Positions 112-5,934 of a DNA stretch of 5,970 nt are shown here, one piece after another. The position numbers and the translations under genes are program-made. Positions within the stretch are counted from its first letter, which is position 1, and each line of letters begins with the position of its first letter. The notes under the pieces are model-generated. The model saw only the letters and a list, made by a program, of their open reading frames with translations, had not been told where the DNA came from and searched no databases. Origin of the DNA: Treponema sp. (GTDB taxonomy: Bacteria; Spirochaetota; Spirochaetia; Treponematales; Treponemataceae); NCBI GenBank assembly GCA_017617145.1, contig JAFZWX010000064.1, positions 1 to 5,970 on the forward strand, in the 5' to 3' direction.

Positions 112-462
112 GTGTGGCTGAAATCGGCGGGCTCTAACAGCGGATATGGTGACTATAAAGATGGTTGGGAAATACCTGGGGGAAAACTTGAACCAGGTGA
201 AACTCCAGAGGCTTGTATTGTCCGAGAAATCCGTGAAGAGTTGGCTACAGAAATAAAAGCAGAAAAAATTCTTGGGGTAGTGGACTACGATTATCCAAAC
301 TTCCATCTAATTATGTATTGTATTTTGTGTACTATAGTTTCTGGCGAGCTTAAACTTCTTGAACACGAAGCAGCAAAATGGGTAACTAAAGAGACCTTGC
401 GTTCTGTGGACTGGCTTCCGGCAGATCAGTTGATTTTGGATAAGATTGAAGAAATCTTGTAA
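112..462 (+). pseudogene. Nudix hydrolase (MutT/8-oxo-dGTP pyrophosphohydrolase type), 5'-truncated
   Basis: The 116-residue reading frame contains a clear Nudix box at about residues 24-46: G24, E30, R38-E39, E42-E43, that is G-x5-E-x7-RE-x2-EE. The usual glycine near its end is replaced by A45, which occurs in this subfamily. The preceding GYGDYKDGWEIPGG, and the DYDYPNFHL and HEAAKW stretches further on, are typical of small MutT-like enzymes that hydrolyse (deoxy)nucleoside triphosphates to monophosphate and pyrophosphate. Relatives begin about 20 residues earlier with a hydrophobic beta strand ending in a TQRG-like motif. Here an in-frame TAG (109-111) lies directly before the GTG at 112, the first ten residues (MWLKSAGSNS) do not resemble the family, and no Shine-Dalgarno site precedes the GTG. 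The other two forward frames upstream do not encode the missing part. I infer a gene cut by recombination near 138-141; a functional short protein is not excluded. Confidence 0.65.
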
Positions 463-576: not shown

Positions 577-597
577 AAAAACTCATAAGTAGTTTTT
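577..597 (-). terminator. Weak hairpin with T-tract at the end of the GHKL ATPase gene
   Basis: On the minus strand the stop codon begins a stem AAAAACT (597-591) paired with AGTTTTT (583-577) across a 7-nt loop, and the 3' arm runs into a T tract. The stem is almost entirely A/T, so it would be a weak intrinsic terminator. Its position overlapping the stop codon at 598-596 is right for ending the nuclease-ATPase transcript. The rest of 463-576 shows no gene or strong structure. Confidence 0.35.
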
Positions 598-2398
598 ATT
601 GTTGTTTCAATTTTTCAATAAATTGTCTTAATGAAAGTAAAGGTTTTTCACTTGCAGCACCAAGATTATATGAACCCGGCCATTTTAATAAATAATTACT
701 TCCATAAAACAATACATCATCTTTCTCTAACGGAGTTACTTCAACAGAATTCTTGGATAAAGCCTGTTCATCAAAATCCCAGCAAACAAGTAAATCCATA
801 TCTGTGAAGAATTTAATATCAGCAGTAAGATCATCAATAATTGATTGTGCGGCAAACTTAAACTCAATAACACAAGGTAAATCAATTGTGTCAACATCAT
901 TGAACATAGACTTTATGTTTTTCCCTATATCATTTGTACTTATCTGATAATTCGCCCAAAGATCGTAAGTTTGTTTATAACCTGTACTTAAAGACTTATA
1001 ACCTTTTAATATACCAGCACCTACTAACTCATGAAAAAGGGCAACTACTGCAGCCTCTTGGCCATTCGGGTTCTTTTGATAATTAATACAATCAAGACCT
1101 AAGTTTGCATAACAATTTTTCATATTATCATAAATTTTTTGTTTTTCATTAGCTTGTACTGTTGCGTTAATATTACGTACGGCTGGATCAGAACTTACAT
1201 ATTTTATAAATGGAAGAAACTCAGTGAATAATTCTTTCGCTATTTCTTTAAATAATCCTTTAGTTCTTGAAGGGACTGTTTTGCGGCCAAGATCAAATGT
1301 AATATAATCGTCTTCAAGTAGAATGAAGAAATTTCCCCAATATCCAGCATATCCTGTTGTTGGTGGTTCAATAATTATTCCTGTTGGCATTCCTTTTGTA
1401 GCTATATAAATACCAGCAGTAACAAGAGGAACTTTGTCTTGATTTGATTCAGTAATGTAATAATTATTTTTTTCACAAATATCGGCCCATAATAAACGAG
1501 TAGGAGCAAAAAAACAATAATAATTTATGGAATGATTTTTATATTGCCTAGTACTCTTCTTAACCAATGCATTACCTGCTAATTTTTGCGATTTTTGTTT
1601 ATCATCATAGGTTGCTGCTTTTTGTTTGAATTCGTTTAATTCAATTACTTTTTTATTACAGAATTCTTCTGGAAGCAAATATTTAAAAGGGATTGAGAAT
1701 TTATGTTCCTTGTTATAGAGATCAACATATTTTAGAGTTACTTTAATGTTAGGTTGTGTTTCTCCAAAAACCCCTTTTAAATACCCTATTACAGTTTTAG
1801 TACGTAAAATATAAATAAGAACTTCTGGAGTTTGATTGAACAAATCATCTGCTTCAAAGGTATTTTTATCAATATCTGATAATTCGATTTCAGTAAATGT
1901 TTTTTCTGTATGTTCTGTTGATTTTTCTTGTTTAATAGTCAATTCAGGAATTTTTGAGGTTGCTCCAATTCGCCATATTGATGCGCTGTTAATCGATCCC
2001 TCAAAAAAGGATTCAGTATTTTGTGTTTTTATTGAAAATTCATTACAAGAGAAAATGGTATATGTGAGACCAACTCCCTTCTCGCCTATGGAATCATTTT
2101 CTTCTTCCTTATCAGTTCCATTTGGTGCAACCACATCCTTTACTTTGGAGGCTTCTATTCCAATTCCAGTATCGCGTATTGAAATTGTTCTTCCTGGTAC
2201 ACAAATTTTTATTTCAATCTCATGTTCTCTATTGTTATTAGGAAAAGAGATATTATATCTTTTTATTGCATCAACAGAATTCTGAGTTAATTCACTTAAA
2301 ATGTCCCACGAATTACTATAACTGTTGATAATATTATTTATTTCCTTCCTTAAAGATGTTATTGATCTGTTTTCCAAGAAATTATAAGAATTAGACAT
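596..2398 (-). CDS. GHKL (Hsp90/MutL-like) ATPase with a C-terminal PD-(D/E)XK-like domain
   Basis: This 600-residue protein starts with a Bergerat-fold ATPase domain. The N-box is ELTQNSVDAI (E36, N40, D43, Mg-ATP binding), motif G1 is DTGIG (76-80) and motif G2 is GEKGVG (105-110), as in Hsp90, MutL and MORC-type ATPases, which dimerise on ATP binding. Residues about 200-430 are an unassigned middle region. Near the C-terminus, YD (D479) and IEFK (E512, K514), followed by a hydrophobic LLVCWD strand, look like a PD-(D/E)XK nuclease core; this is an inference from motifs. There is no signal peptide or membrane segment, so the protein is presumably cytoplasmic. I chose the ATG at 2398 because GGAG lies 6 nt before it; the upstream TTG at 2410 abuts that GGAG. 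It is the second gene of an operon, 62 bp behind the nuclease gene. It is AT-rich like its partner and unlike the 3844 and 5284 genes. Function in phage or plasmid defence is plausible but unproven. Confidence 0.8.
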   Translation of the reverse strand: MSNSYNFLENRSITSLRKEINNIINSYSNSWDILSELTQNSVDAIKRYNISFPNNNREHEIEIKICVPGRTISIRDTGIGIEASKVKDVVAPNGTDKEEENDSIGEKGVGLTYTIFSCNEFSIKTQNTESFFEGSINSASIWRIGATSKIPELTIKQEKSTEHTEKTFTEIELSDIDKNTFEADDLFNQTPEVLIYILRTKTVIGYLKGVFGETQPNIKVTLKYVDLYNKEHKFSIPFKYLLPEEFCNKKVIELNEFKQKAATYDDKQKSQKLAGNALVKKSTRQYKNHSINYYCFFAPTRLLWADICEKNNYYITESNQDKVPLVTAGIYIATKGMPTGIIIEPPTTGYAGYWGNFFILLEDDYITFDLGRKTVPSRTKGLFKEIAKELFTEFLPFIKYVSSDPAVRNINATVQANEKQKIYDNMKNCYANLGLDCINYQKNPNGQEAAVVALFHELVGAGILKGYKSLSTGYKQTYDLWANYQISTNDIGKNIKSMFNDVDTIDLPCVIEFKFAAQSIIDDLTADIKFFTDMDLLVCWDFDEQALSKNSVEVTPLEKDDVLFYGSNYLLKWPGSYNLGAASEKPLLSLRQFIEKLKQQ

Positions 2399-2450
2399 TG
2401 TTTTCTCCAAAATACGATATCAAGATATATTCTAATTCCCATTTAAAAAA

Positions 2451-2462
2451 AGATCTAGATCT
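2451..2462. repeat. 12-bp perfect palindrome at the nuclease/ATPase gene junction
   Basis: AGATCTAGATCT is two tandem AGATCT hexamers and also a perfect palindrome. It overlaps the stop codon of the nuclease gene (2463-2461). On the minus strand it is directly followed by a run of T, so a short 4-bp stem plus T tract could cause some termination before the ATPase gene. The stem is too short to be confident; it may equally be chance or a protein-binding site. Confidence 0.3.
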
Positions 2463-3672
2463 AAGAATCAATCAATTCATATATGAAATCAAAGAATTCA
2501 ACAGGTGTCATTTTATAGATTTCTACATAGGGGATTTCTTTAGTATAAAAAATGTTTTGCCTTTGCCAGTAATTGATTGCTTTTTTGGTTCTTATCGTTA
2601 TTGTTTCTTTATTCAAATTATCGTTTGGAAATTCAATTTCAATTTCAGGGTCTTTAAGCTGTATTATATTCATACGATTTTTGTTTTGGAAGTTTATAAA
2701 TGGTTCTTTAAATTTTAATAGATACATATTTTCTGGGTGTCTTACAAAATAATGATAAAAATTATTTTTTACTGTTCCAGGCTGCTCATTTTTTGGATAA
2801 ATTTTATCTTTAAGTTTTTCTAGGAATGTAGAATACAAATGTGATTCAACTGGATTAAGATTCAAATCATCTTTTATATAATTTATTAATTCATAATAAA
2901 TTTGTGCCCTTTGCTTAAGAGTTACATTAATTAAATCAATGTCAAATAATTCAAGAAGTTCTGACATTATACTTGAATAGAATTCTTTTTCTCTTTCTCT
3001 TAAACCAAATCTACCTTCCAAATAATCGATGTACTGAATAAGGGTCGATTTGAGAAAAACCTCTTTTGAGAATTCTAGATATGTAAGTATGTCTTTAAAT
3101 AACGGAAGAAGATTATCTTTATAATTTAATTCTATATATCTTCCAGTACTGTTCTCTGTAATTCCAAGAAAAGCTTTAGCTTCGGTTGTTAAACTTTCAG
3201 AGGAAACCTTTTTAGTCCCATCATCAGTAAGATATATGACATAGATTTTATCATTTGGTATATTTGCAATTTTGTTAACAGATTCTACATAACGTTTTAT
3301 TTGTTCTTTTTGATCTTCTGCCCAATTAATTTTATTTTCTATAATAATCGCAATTTTATTATTTTCTTCATGTGAATAAATTAAACCATCAATTTGACAC
3401 CATTGATATTGAAATCCAGGATTGTTAATTTTTTTAATCTTAAGGTCTGTTTTGAGATTTTCGTTTTCATTTAGAAGTTCTAAAAACTTATTTAAAATGA
3501 AATACTCTCTATTTCTTGAGAATTGTAGTAGTTTCATAAGTAGTCTAGTATGTGCATTTTCATTTGCATGTAATTCATCAATAATATTAATATCGTAAGG
3601 CCTTTTTGCATCATTTTTTTCTATGATTTTTTTCATTTCTGAAATGAAAACTTCTTTTGGTAACTTATTCAT
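2461..3672 (-). CDS. PD-(D/E)XK superfamily nuclease (PDDEXK_4-like)
   Basis: This is a 403-residue cytoplasmic protein. The N-terminal half matches the PD-(D/E)XK nuclease pattern: a helical NENAHTRLL segment (37-45, with acidic E38), then D95 in QIDGLI, then IIIENKI with E112 and K114, then WAEDQ-x2-Q-x3-Y (117-128). That order (ExxxxxxLL...D...E-N-K...Q...Y) is characteristic of the PDDEXK_4 family found in many bacterial genomes and assumed to cut nucleic acid with divalent metal. The C-terminal half (about 210-403) is helical, then beta-rich, and I cannot assign it; it could recognise the target or bind the ATPase partner. The ATG has AAGGAGA 5 nt upstream (3684-3678). It is the first gene of the operon with the GHKL ATPase, and it is divergent from the tautomerase gene. 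Base composition is strongly A/T. Family call good; function as defence nuclease inferred. Confidence 0.8.
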   Translation of the reverse strand: MNKLPKEVFISEMKKIIEKNDAKRPYDINIIDELHANENAHTRLLMKLLQFSRNREYFILNKFLELLNENENLKTDLKIKKINNPGFQYQWCQIDGLIYSHEENNKIAIIIENKINWAEDQKEQIKRYVESVNKIANIPNDKIYVIYLTDDGTKKVSSESLTTEAKAFLGITENSTGRYIELNYKDNLLPLFKDILTYLEFSKEVFLKSTLIQYIDYLEGRFGLREREKEFYSSIMSELLELFDIDLINVTLKQRAQIYYELINYIKDDLNLNPVESHLYSTFLEKLKDKIYPKNEQPGTVKNNFYHYFVRHPENMYLLKFKEPFINFQNKNRMNIIQLKDPEIEIEFPNDNLNKETITIRTKKAINYWQRQNIFYTKEIPYVEIYKMTPVEFFDFIYELIDS

Positions 3673-3843: not shown

Positions 3844-4185
3844 ATGCCAATGATTGAAGCCAAGGTAACCATGCAGTTACCTTCAGAAAAAAGAGATGTA
3901 TTAAAAGCCGAGTTCGGAAAAGCTATAAGCATTCTGGGAAAGCCGGAATCTTATTTGATGATTAATCTAGTCGACAATCAGGATTTGTACTTTGGTGGCA
4001 ACAAGCTTGATAAAGGAGCTTATGTAGAAGTAAAAGTTCTTGGCAGCGTAGACGGTGGAGCCAGTGACAAAATGACGGCCAAGGTGTGCGAGATTCTGCA
4101 GAGTGAACTTGGAATTCCCGGAAACGCGATTTATGTTTCGTACTGGGGAACCGGTAACTGGGGCTGGAACGGCGGAAACTTTTAG
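3844..4185 (+). CDS. MIF-like tautomerase (phenylpyruvate tautomerase/MIF family)
   Basis: At 113 residues the protein has the family's usual length (about 114). It begins Met-Pro, so removal of Met exposes the N-terminal proline that acts as the catalytic base in the tautomerase superfamily. Numbering from that proline, K32 falls at the position of the active-site lysine of human MIF, and Y96 and S98 correspond roughly to its Y95 and N97. The tail NWGWNGGNF resembles MIF's C-terminal GWN..F. The CXXC motif of mammalian MIF is absent (AYVEV in its place), so the thiol-oxidoreductase activity is not expected. Relatives form homotrimers in the cytosol, and some modulate host cytokine signalling; the natural substrate here is unknown. 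The start has AGGAG 7 nt upstream. Base composition is much richer in G/C than both flanking genes, so it probably has a different history from them. Confidence 0.85.
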   Translation: MPMIEAKVTMQLPSEKRDVLKAEFGKAISILGKPESYLMINLVDNQDLYFGGNKLDKGAYVEVKVLGSVDGGASDKMTAKVCEILQSELGIPGNAIYVSYWGTGNWGWNGGNF

Positions 4186-4202: not shown

Positions 4203-4976
4203 ATGAAAATAATAACTAAAATTGAATCAATAAAAGACTGGAAAAGAGTGTATCCCCCAGCTGGGAAAGATAAACAATGGAAAGATTGTTATAGTGCTAA
4301 AGAGTTTGCAAAAATTGTTACAGATTCTTATAAAGATATCAGTTTTGAAGAAGATTTACGCAATAAGTTACACTTTAATAATTCGTTTCATCTTTTACCA
4401 GAAGAAACATATCCTGAACATTTAAGTGCCTTTGATAATAATTTTAGAGGAAAAAGGCACCACGATTTGGCATGTATTGCTAAAATGGATAACAAAAGGA
4501 TGGCTTTGTGGTTTGAGGCAAAAGTAAATGAATCTTTAGATAAACAACTTTTCAAATATCTAGATTCAAAAGGTAAGAAAGAACGTGTTGATGCTATTTT
4601 AAAGAGTTTTTTTAAAACAGAATATAAAAATGAAATGCATGGAAATATTTACTATCAGATTTTATCTGCTATAGCTGGTTCAATTGCATTTGCCTATGAA
4701 AATGCGGCCAATGATGTTTATTTTATTCTATATCAGATTGAACCAGAAAAAAATAATCAAGTTAAAAATGTTGAAAAGAATATGAATGCACTAAATGATT
4801 TTATTTCATTATTTGGAATAAAAGAAAGAATAGATCCTGATAATAATACTGTTTGTTTGGGAGATCTATCAATTGAGCGTCATCTTTATGATGAAAATCG
4901 TGATTTAGGGCAAATGCATGCAAATGTTTCTGTTGCATTTGTGGAGAAAGAAGTTACAGGTGAATCTATAGATTAA
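4203..4976 (+). CDS. DUF6946-like protein with a PD-(D/E)XK-type signature
   Basis: This 257-residue soluble protein resembles, from memory, the uncharacterised DUF6946 family: WKDCYSAKEFA (26-36), an LLPEE stretch (64-68), HDLACIA (87-93), ALWFEAKVNES (101-111), a GKKERVDAIL segment, then YYQILSAIAGSIAFAYENAANDVYFILYQ. D88 and E105-A-K107 sit on successive predicted strands in the spacing of a PD-(D/E)XK nuclease core, so a metal-dependent nuclease or nuclease-derived role is possible; activity is not known to me. The start codon has AGAGG 7 nt upstream (4191-4195), and the gene lies 17 bp behind the tautomerase gene, implying co-transcription. It is far more A/T-rich than that gene (15 of 60 G/C at 4321-4380 against 29 of 60 at 4021-4080), pointing to separate acquisition. 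Family name moderately sure; function inferred. Confidence 0.6.
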   Translation: MKIITKIESIKDWKRVYPPAGKDKQWKDCYSAKEFAKIVTDSYKDISFEEDLRNKLHFNNSFHLLPEETYPEHLSAFDNNFRGKRHHDLACIAKMDNKRMALWFEAKVNESLDKQLFKYLDSKGKKERVDAILKSFFKTEYKNEMHGNIYYQILSAIAGSIAFAYENAANDVYFILYQIEPEKNNQVKNVEKNMNALNDFISLFGIKERIDPDNNTVCLGDLSIERHLYDENRDLGQMHANVSVAFVEKEVTGESID

Positions 4977-5017
4977 AGTATTTTTAATGGGTCATAAATT
5001 CTTCCGGTGGATAAGAT

Positions 5018-5044
5018 TTATATATTTTTTATATAAGTTTTTTT
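5018..5044 (+). terminator. A/T-only hairpin followed by a T tract
   Basis: TTATATA (5018-5024) and TATATAA (5030-5036) pair across a TTTTT loop and are followed by G and seven T (5038-5044). The location, about 40 bp behind the DUF6946-like gene, suits a weak terminator or attenuator for the 3844-4976 transcript. Because the stem contains no G-C pair it may not terminate. The same stretch holds TATATT-like hexamers that could instead be the -10 of the next gene, although no good -35 was seen. Confidence 0.3.
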
Positions 5045-5045
5045 C

Positions 5046-5054
5046 AAAGGAGGT
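5046..5054 (+). promoter_or_regulatory. Strong Shine-Dalgarno site that fixes the start at 5062
   Basis: AAAGGAGGT is a near-complete match to the anti-Shine-Dalgarno sequence, with GGAGG (5049-5053) 8 nt before the ATG at 5062. An upstream in-frame ATG at 4987 has no such site. A nearer ATG at 5057 is in another frame and stops after five codons. The start at 5062 is therefore preferred. Confidence 0.75.
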
Positions 5055-5061
5055 AAATGAA

Positions 5062-5277
5062 ATGGCTTATTTAATTATTTCAACTGCAATAGAGCAGTAT
5101 GGATTTTTTTGGGAATTAACACTTGCAAACTTTGTAAAGGTTAATTGTCAGCTTGTAGGTATTAGTGCTAATGCAAGAAAGCAGGGAACGATATTGAAGT
5201 TTATGCTTCCCAATGGACAACGGTTTTCTATTAATATCCTTGAAATCTTAATTATTGAGAAAGGAATACATTTTTAG
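5062..5277 (+). CDS. Small protein of unknown function, 71 residues
   Basis: I do not recognise this protein. It begins MAYLIIST, has an aromatic patch (YGFFWEL, 13-19), a central basic stretch (NARKQG, 37-42), and alternating hydrophobic segments (TILKFML 43-49, RFSINILEILII 54-65) that suggest a small beta-rich, soluble fold rather than a membrane protein. There is one cysteine (C29) and no signal peptide. Evidence that it is real is the very strong Shine-Dalgarno sequence 8 nt before the ATG. Starting at the earlier ATG (4987) would add a 25-residue aromatic/basic extension with no ribosome-binding site, so I reject that start. It lies 85 bp behind the DUF6946-like gene and ends 6 bp from the convergent PLD-like gene. 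Its A/T-rich composition matches the DUF6946-like gene, so the two may have arrived together. A partner or immunity-type role is only a guess. Confidence 0.6.
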   Translation: MAYLIISTAIEQYGFFWELTLANFVKVNCQLVGISANARKQGTILKFMLPNGQRFSINILEILIIEKGIHF

Positions 5278-5283
5278 ATTAGC

Positions 5284-5856
5284 TTATCCAATCGGATCCC
5301 CGCAAAACTTTTTCCGTTTACAGCCCTTACAGAACGCTCCCATCCAGACTTCATCAAACTGGGTGGCGGCGTTCTTAACAAATTCTTTATTGCTGCTCAA
5401 AACCCCAGCTTCAAAATTTCGTGTATTTTCCCCTTTCATTCCAAGCCCTGCTCCTGTCAAATTTGCAGAACCAACATAAGCGGCTTTTAAATCAAATATG
5501 ATGATTTTAAAATGAACTCTTGGGCACAAAACTCGTTCCATACCTTCTATGAGGGCGGGGTATTTGTCAAAATCTTGGCGGAAGGCGGGACCTGGTTCTT
5601 TGGCATGGATTAGGCGGATTTCTACTCCGTGTTTGGTTAGGTCGGAAAGAACCTGAAGCAATGGTTCAGTCCCACGGCCGTCTTTGACATAAAGGTCTTT
5701 TATATCGGCGGTGCCGATCCACAACAACTTTTTTACACTTTTTATTCGTTCGATTACCTGGTCGTAGTGTTGCTCATTTGAAATGTATATGAACTCTGAA
5801 GATGACACATCCGGGGTTTTAGGGGCAGAGGTAGATTGTAATTGCAAGTGCAACAC
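5284..5856 (-). CDS. Phospholipase D-like protein with one HKD motif and a C-terminal cysteine cluster
   Basis: The 190-residue protein carries a single complete HKD motif: H115-F-K117, then D122, followed by GSANLTG (129-135) and an FEAGV strand with E149. Such single-motif proteins (Nuc-type nucleases and relatives) dimerise to form one active site and cleave phosphodiester bonds through a phosphohistidine. Upstream, KKLLWIGTADIKDLYV and VEIRLIHA are the usual beta strands of the fold. The C-terminus has C176-x2-C179-x5-C185 then GDPIG, probably a metal-binding (Zn or Fe-S) cluster; this tail recurs, to my recollection, in a PLD-like subfamily. The 5' end is uncertain: the GTG at 5856 directly follows an in-frame TAA, has no Shine-Dalgarno site, and lies just inside the IS end, so the original start may have been lost. 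TTG codons at 5853 and 5847 are alternatives. G/C-richer than the neighbouring AT-rich genes. Convergent with the 71-aa gene. Confidence 0.75.
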   Translation of the reverse strand: MLHLQLQSTSAPKTPDVSSSEFIYISNEQHYDQVIERIKSVKKLLWIGTADIKDLYVKDGRGTEPLLQVLSDLTKHGVEIRLIHAKEPGPAFRQDFDKYPALIEGMERVLCPRVHFKIIIFDLKAAYVGSANLTGAGLGMKGENTRNFEAGVLSSNKEFVKNAATQFDEVWMGAFCKGCKRKKFCGDPIG

Positions 5857-5873: not shown

Positions 5874-5934
5874 ACTTCATAGAATGTTTAAACCCAAAAA
5901 CTACCACATTAAAGGGACAAACAAACTATGAAGT
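5874..5934. repeat. Imperfect inverted repeat enclosing the transposase start codon
   Basis: Arms 5874-5889 and 5919-5934 pair at 14 of 16 positions: 9 bp (ACTTCATAG with CTATGAAGT), a 2x2 A/A internal loop, then 5 bp (TGTTT with AAACA), around a 29-nt loop. The right arm includes the ATG at 5928. The left arm is followed on the minus strand by seven T, so the same structure could act as a weak terminator for leftward transcription. Confidence 0.6.

What the first reader, a model, noticed from the sequence alone, without database searches (positions are those of the whole stretch)
596..3672. Two-gene GHKL ATPase + PD-(D/E)XK nuclease module, candidate undescribed defence system
Seen: an operon of a nuclease with D95...E112-x-K114 and a 600-aa protein with intact N, G1 and G2 boxes of the Bergerat ATPase fold, close spacing, own promoter and terminator candidates, AT-rich composition. 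Known: GHKL ATPases of the MutL/MORC/Hsp90 type act as ATP-driven clamps or switches, and prokaryotic ones have been linked to restriction-type nucleases. Inferred: the pair acts together against invading DNA. I do not recognise it as one of the named defence systems.
Basis: partly seen in the sequence, partly recalled or inferred. Interest (0 to 1): 0.7.

Follow-up and report, generated by a model that had tools for sequence, protein, structure and literature searches.

The report
ATP-driven DNA-cutting enzyme plus neighbour nuclease
The larger of these two bacterial genes probably encodes a self-contained, ATP-driven DNA-cutting enzyme of a kind already described and likely used against viruses, while the smaller nuclease gene beside it looks like a local neighbour rather than half of a new two-gene defence system.

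Summary
In detail: a 403-aa PD-(D/E)XK nuclease (2461-3672, minus) lies 62 bases upstream of a 600-aa GHKL ATPase (596-2398, minus), motifs intact. E457, D479 and E512-x-K514 are invariant in 61 of 61 aligned family sequences, window included, with a fitting alpha/beta order in the model. GHKL + S5-like middle + E-D-ExK C-terminus is the paraMORC3 layout (Iyer et al. 2008) and the layout of VcSduA, a tested anti-phage protein. At least 9 of 33 relatives have DNA restriction or modification genes within 6 kb. The C-terminal domain is not detectably the Shedu domain, so it probably works like VcSduA but is not shown to be a Shedu member.

The two-gene module is not supported: the nuclease subfamily was found near 0 of 33 ATPase loci, and while ATPase relatives reach 79-88% identity, no listed nuclease relative exceeds 51%.

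Most likely an ATP-gated restriction-type nuclease acting alone on foreign DNA, beside an independent nuclease. A new member of a known kind; function inferred, not shown.

The parts
596..2398 (-). GHKL ATPase with C-terminal E-D-ExK domain (paraMORC3-type), 600 aa
599..1111 (-). C-terminal PD-(D/E)XK-like domain, residues 430-600: E457 (codon 1028-1030), D479 (962-964), E512 (863-865), K514 (857-859)
   Evidence: E457, D479, E512, K514 61/61; 29-sequence C-terminal alignment A3; helix-strand-strand-strand(ExK)-helix-strand order in the model (the block around D479 has low confidence, mean pLDDT 61); D-x12-ExK spacing in 17 relatives. Fold not confirmed by structure search
2461..3672 (-). PDDEXK_4 (PF14281) nuclease, 403 aa; first gene of the two-gene strand unit
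2399..2460 (-). 62-bp gap with a GGAG ribosome-site-like sequence before the ATPase ATG

Best explanation
The 600-aa protein is a self-contained, ATP-gated DNA endonuclease of the paraMORC3 kind. Shown here: an intact GHKL ATP site, an S5-like middle region and a C-terminal E-D-ExK domain, all strictly conserved in the family; part of the relatives lie beside restriction-modification genes. Inferred: it dimerises through the GHKL domain on ATP binding, the middle domain clamps DNA, and clamp closure or ATP hydrolysis licenses the C-terminal domains to cut foreign (unmodified or otherwise wrongly marked) DNA, so that it acts as a stand-alone defence nuclease in this host, like VcSduA. The upstream PDDEXK_4 nuclease is most likely an independent accessory gene that happens to share the transcription unit.
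For: ATP motifs and E457/D479/E512/K514 invariant in 61 of 61. Model and fold match over residues 9-410 to Hsp90, topoisomerase VI-B, SMCHD1 and MORC3. paraMORC3 is described in print as GHKL + S5 + C-terminal domain with E-D-ExK, in restriction-modification neighbourhoods or standing alone (PMC2292703, section 5 read whole). Within 6 kb of the 33 relatives: C5-methyltransferase in 4 (L004, L008, L026, L031), Sau3AI/MutH-type restriction enzyme in 3 (L004 by similarity, L026, L031), Vsr in 3 (L004, L008, L031), type I R-M subunits in L024 (M and R) and L017 (M), N6/N4-type methyltransferase in L003 and L019, DndC-DndD in L005; together at least 9 of 33. VcSduA, same layout, loses anti-phage activity on mutating either site (PMC12137116, passages). 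The second nuclease does not travel with it.
Against: I found no biochemical or phage test of this family (searches, open-licence papers only). The C-terminal domain hits no Pfam or PDB nuclease convincingly (best CoiA_nuc, E 0.0067, 3 of 29 members match it), PADLOC shows only a DruL match in 1 of 29 (E 6e-4), and the fold search did not test that part. In 24 of 33 loci no such gene was recognised within 6 kb (their neighbours were not all scanned), so a repair or other role is possible, as Iyer et al. noted for solo copies.
Confidence: 0.6

Rival explanations
1. The two genes are one functional two-component defence system: the PDDEXK_4 nuclease is the effector or sensor and the GHKL protein its ATP-driven switch.
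For: Same strand, 62-bp gap, both AT-rich against most flanking genes. A convergent gene on one side and a divergent one on the other leave them as one strand unit. Each protein's top cluster stands for more than one contig (3 and 4), so the pair may exist in a few close copies.
Against: Nuclease subfamily near 0 of 33 ATPase loci; GHKL family near 0 of 13 PDDEXK_4 loci (flanks about 1.5 kb or less) and 0 of 3 viral-contig nuclease loci. ATPase relatives at 88, 85 and 79% identity exist, the last on a 42-kb contig, but the next nuclease is 50% identical and none of the 120 listed exceeds 51%. The ATPase already has a nuclease-like domain.
Confidence: 0.15
2. It is a GHKL-Shedu (type I-D) protein, i.e. 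a direct relative of VcSduA.
For: Same domain order and similar size; VcSduA's authors say proteins of that layout were formerly annotated paraMORC3.
Against: SduA_C (PF14082) matches no scanned family member; the 3 matches in 15 genomes of relatives are other, shorter ORFs. Profile comparison with two GHKL + SduA_C proteins (L087, L088) aligns only residues 2-236 (E 3.5e-4); C-termini E 0.053, against 1e-8 for the control SduA_C comparison. That control is partly circular, since L087 and L088 were found by SduA_C, and two sequences give low power.
Confidence: 0.12
3. Solo copies act in DNA repair (MutL/MutH-like mismatch or lesion processing), not defence.
For: Iyer et al. raised a non-RM role for solo paraMORC3. 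In 24 of 33 loci no restriction or modification gene was recognised within 6 kb. GHKL plus nuclease is also the MutL arrangement (recalled).
Against: Patchy occurrence at E <= 1e-30: 1 of 391 genomes in the class of G012 and 2 of 345 in the phylum of G007, each count including the centre genome. AT-rich setting in the window; links to R-M and Dnd genes in at least 9 of 33.
Confidence: 0.1

Closest known systems
paraMORC3 family (Iyer, Abhiman, Aravind 2008, PMC2292703)
   Same: GHKL + S5-like middle + C-terminal E-D-ExK domain; patchy in bacteria and archaea; in restriction-modification neighbourhoods or without conserved neighbours
   Different: The proteins named in 2008 were not in the text read, so direct sequence membership was not checked; the window copy has a second nuclease gene beside it
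VcSduA, Shedu type I-D (PMC12137116)
   Same: Single protein with N-terminal GHKL ATPase and C-terminal PD-(D/E)XK nuclease; its authors hypothesise that the ATPase controls the nuclease
   Different: VcSduA ends in DUF4263/SduA_C; the window family's C-terminus is not detectably SduA_C. VcSduA itself was not available for a direct comparison
BbrUII/HgiDII restriction enzymes (NCBIfam NF050001)
   Same: Weak similarity in the GHKL part
   Different: 13.5 bits against a cut-off of 550, residues 24-182 only
Tiamat TmtA (PADLOC)
   Same: GHKL-type ATP site; one TmtA model matches 23 of 32 family members, another reaches E 1.4e-12
   Different: In the window protein the match covers positions 57-130 of a 1782-position model, 14.7 bits

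Membership tests
paraMORC3 | N-terminal GHKL domain with intact ATP motifs | tested here: met
   61/61 conserved, HATPase_c_3 above cut-off
paraMORC3 | S5-type middle domain | tested here: met
paraMORC3 | C-terminal globular domain with E-D-ExK | tested here: met
   E457, D479, E512-x-K514 61/61; helix-strand-strand-strand-helix-strand order in the model; the fold itself was not confirmed by structure search
paraMORC3 | RM-linked or standalone gene neighbourhoods | tested here: met
   R-M, methyltransferase or Dnd genes within 6 kb in at least 9 of 33 loci; no recurrent partner recognised in the rest
paraMORC3 | Sequence relation to the proteins named in 2008 | not tested
   Accessions are not in the passages read
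Shedu type I-D (VcSduA) | C-terminal SduA_C/DUF4263 domain | tested here: not met
   No PF14082 match in the window protein, nor among the 32, 10 and 29 (overlapping) entries; hhalign C-termini E 0.053 against control 1e-8
Shedu type I-D (VcSduA) | N-terminal GHKL ATPase | tested here: met
   region shared with L087/L088 is residues 2-236
Shedu type I-D (VcSduA) | Anti-phage activity needing ATPase and nuclease sites | not testable with these tools
   needs a bench test
Conserved two-gene GHKL + PDDEXK_4 module | Homologues neighbour each other across genomes | tested here: not met
   0 of 33 ATPase loci for the nuclease subfamily, 0 of 13 PDDEXK_4 loci, no co-inheritance; wider PDDEXK_4 members could be missed near the ATPase
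PDDEXK_4 (PF14281), smaller protein | Pfam model and D-ExK motif | tested here: met
   50.6 bits, cut-off 22.3; D95, E112, K114 in 21/21
Tiamat | Match to most of the TmtA model | tested here: not met
   74 of 1782 positions in the window protein
BbrUII/HgiDII restriction enzymes | NCBIfam equivalog cut-off 550 bits | tested here: not met
   13.5 bits
HtpG/Hsp90 chaperone | NCBIfam equivalog cut-off 371 bits | tested here: not met
   22.3 bits, residues 27-91 only

The most novel reading that the evidence does not exclude
A family of ATP-gated nucleases, parallel to but separate from GHKL-Shedu, forms an untested stand-alone defence system and elsewhere serves as a second layer for Sau3AI-type, type I and Dnd systems; in this treponeme-like host it has recruited a PDDEXK_4 nuclease as a partner, giving a machine with one ATPase and two nucleases.
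Probability: 0.13. Interest if true: 0.6.

Novelty: new member of a known kind. Interest (0 to 1): 0.33.

Why it matters
It turns a supposed two-gene unknown into a testable single-protein hypothesis with named catalytic residues (E36, E457, D479, E512, K514) in a family that sits next to restriction and DNA-mark genes in some hosts. It also suggests that the GHKL + nuclease design occurs with at least two detectably different C-terminal domains, so defence finders that rely on SduA_C would miss this branch.

Tried and rejected
Considered and rejected: chaperone (HtpG), Tiamat and BbrUII/HgiDII, each matching only the ATP-binding part of the window protein. Phage origin: no record of the phage collection has the ATPase; the one viral-contig match, L037, has the same length and match span as the Metabacillus contig L002. 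The nuclease has no plasmid match and one partial phage-record match (27% of the query). Window DNA against plasmids: only pieces at the MIF and PLD genes in 2 records. PDB sequence search with the C-terminal profile: nothing at E 10. Profile comparison of the two nuclease-type domains: no relation. 'PF14281' is in 0 papers searched; 'PDDEXK_4' does not occur in the 10 papers listed of 7,095. Gu 2025 and Loeff 2025 on Shedu are not held; nothing of them was read.

Limits: the profile A2 finds its own subfamily but the wider PDDEXK_4 family poorly: with filters off it recovered 4 of 13 PF14281 loci at E <= 0.01 and missed 9, so 'absent near the ATPase' speaks for the window's nuclease subfamily. 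(A2 in 0 of 15 genomes or records) had no positive control and is weak. Several loci are short contigs. Pfam/PADLOC was run on only 10 neighbour genes and PDB sequence search on 6 more (one, L021, without a match), out of 337 neighbouring ORFs, so 9 of 33 is a lower bound. Other weak hits not followed: LmuA in 1 of 32 family members (E 3.9e-4) and DruL in 2 of 32, DruL in 1 of 29 C-termini. Rows dropped: L027, L031, L032 and L033 (broken or partial ORFs) from the 61-sequence alignment; L022 from A3 (92% identical to L024), 4 of 17 SduA_C stretches gave stops because I read the wrong strand and were left out, and L045 and L057 were not used. The 61 sequences include the window's own protein and 4 near-identical pairs. 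The hhalign negatives rest on few sequences and are weak evidence.

Full report
What is there. The window carries, in order: a NUDIX gene (112-462, +), the GHKL gene (596-2398, -), the PDDEXK_4 nuclease gene (2461-3672, -), a MIF-like gene (3844-4185, +), a DUF6946 gene (4203-4976, +), a small ORF (4987-5277, +) and a PLD-domain gene (5284-5856, -). The two genes of the finding share a strand, are 62 bp apart, and each has a GGAG-type ribosome-site-like sequence. They are more AT-rich (30.4 and 25.7% GC) than the NUDIX, MIF and PLD genes (41.6-44.2%), as are the DUF6946 gene and the small ORF (28.9 and 29.9%), which suggests acquired DNA. Promoter-like and terminator-like matches are at chance level. 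No whole genome is held for the window. The MIF gene is 78% identical in DNA to one on Treponema saccharophilum pTS1, and some nuclease relatives are labelled Spirochaetaceae or Treponema, so a treponeme-like host is likely but inferred.

What it is like. Iyer et al. 2008 (PMC2292703; passages, section 5 read whole) described paraMORC3 as GHKL + S5 with an extra C-terminal domain bearing E-D-ExK, in restriction-modification neighbourhoods or, for a subset, alone. The present family fits each feature that could be tested. A 2021 paper (PMC8011034, passages) likewise ties other HATPase_c_3 proteins to type II R-M regions rich in C5-methylases. VcSduA (PMC12137116, passages) has the same layout, is related by its authors to paraMORC3, and loses anti-phage activity when either the ATPase or the nuclease site is mutated. 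But VcSduA ends in SduA_C, and this family does not detectably: PF14082 matches none of the family members scanned, and two Bacteroidota proteins of the GHKL + SduA_C layout (L087, L088) align with it only over residues 2-236. So it probably works like VcSduA without being shown to be a Shedu.

Neighbourhoods. One scan of genome contigs gave 33 loci in bacteria and archaea. I grouped 337 neighbouring ORFs within 6 kb by similarity. The groups found in three or four loci were C5-methyltransferase (L004, L008, L026, L031), a Sau3AI/MutH-type restriction enzyme (L004 by similarity, L026, L031), Vsr (L004, L008, L031) and a group that looks like helix-turn-helix proteins by eye (L010, L019, L026). 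Among the eleven two-locus groups are type I R-M methyltransferases (L017, L024), a methyltransferase group (L003 with an Mrr domain, L019), and AspBHI-like methyl-dependent enzymes (L026, L031); the others have no restriction theme that I recognised. L024 also has a type I R subunit 400 bp upstream of the gene, and L005 has DndC and DndD. Together at least 9 of 33 loci (L003, L004, L005, L008, L017, L019, L024, L026, L031) have restriction or DNA-modification genes within 6 kb; this is a lower bound because most neighbours were not scanned. Over the whole fetched flanks a C5-methyltransferase is present in 6 of 33 and Vsr in 4 of 33. A distant plasmid relative in Rhizobium rhizogenes has a cytosine methyltransferase beside it and Vsr about 5.5 kb away. 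L027 and L031 are broken copies.

The pairing. The window's nuclease subfamily is near none of the 33 loci (and with filters off, best E 0.23). The GHKL family is near none of 13 PDDEXK_4 loci from 341 genomes (flanks 1.5 kb or less) and none of three viral-contig nuclease loci. In the protein database the ATPase has relatives at 88, 85 and 79% identity (the last on a 42-kb contig), while the nuclease's next relative is 50% identical and none of the 120 listed (of 544) exceeds 51%. If the two were inherited together, nucleases of similar closeness should be present, unless the nuclease evolves much faster. The pair is therefore local as far as tested; a recent functional partnership is not excluded.

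Verdict. A real, well-conserved, probably ATP-gated nuclease of a described kind, most likely defensive, next to an unrelated nuclease in an AT-rich stretch of accessory genes. The proposal of an undescribed two-gene defence system is not supported.

Noticed in passing
window 4203-4976 (+): DUF6946 protein has D88 followed by E105-A-K107, so it may be another PD-(D/E)XK-type protein; AT-rich like the two genes of the finding.
   Followed up: partly
window 5284-5856 (-): PLD-domain protein with weak matches to DISARM DrmC and other PLD-type defence models.
   Followed up: no
window 3844-4185 (+); L041 6018-6359: MIF-like gene 78% identical in DNA to one on Treponema saccharophilum pTS1 that sits among an LlaJI restriction-modification set, Vsr and a Doc-type toxin.
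   Followed up: partly
window 5874-5934: 16-nt inverted repeat (88%) at the right edge, overlapping a possible ORF start (by eye); possibly the end of an insertion sequence.
   Followed up: no
window 112-462 (+): MutT-like NUDIX protein matching PADLOC candidate PDC-S07 at E 1.2e-36.
   Followed up: no
L004, L026, L031: The GHKL-nuclease family recurs with a Sau3AI-type restriction enzyme plus C5-methyltransferase in an archaeon, a Lachnospiraceae MAG and a lactobacillus; the copy in L031 is broken.
   Followed up: partly
L024 2635-9589, L017 13077-14858: Type I restriction-modification subunits within 6 kb of the GHKL-nuclease gene.
   Followed up: partly
   Followed up: partly
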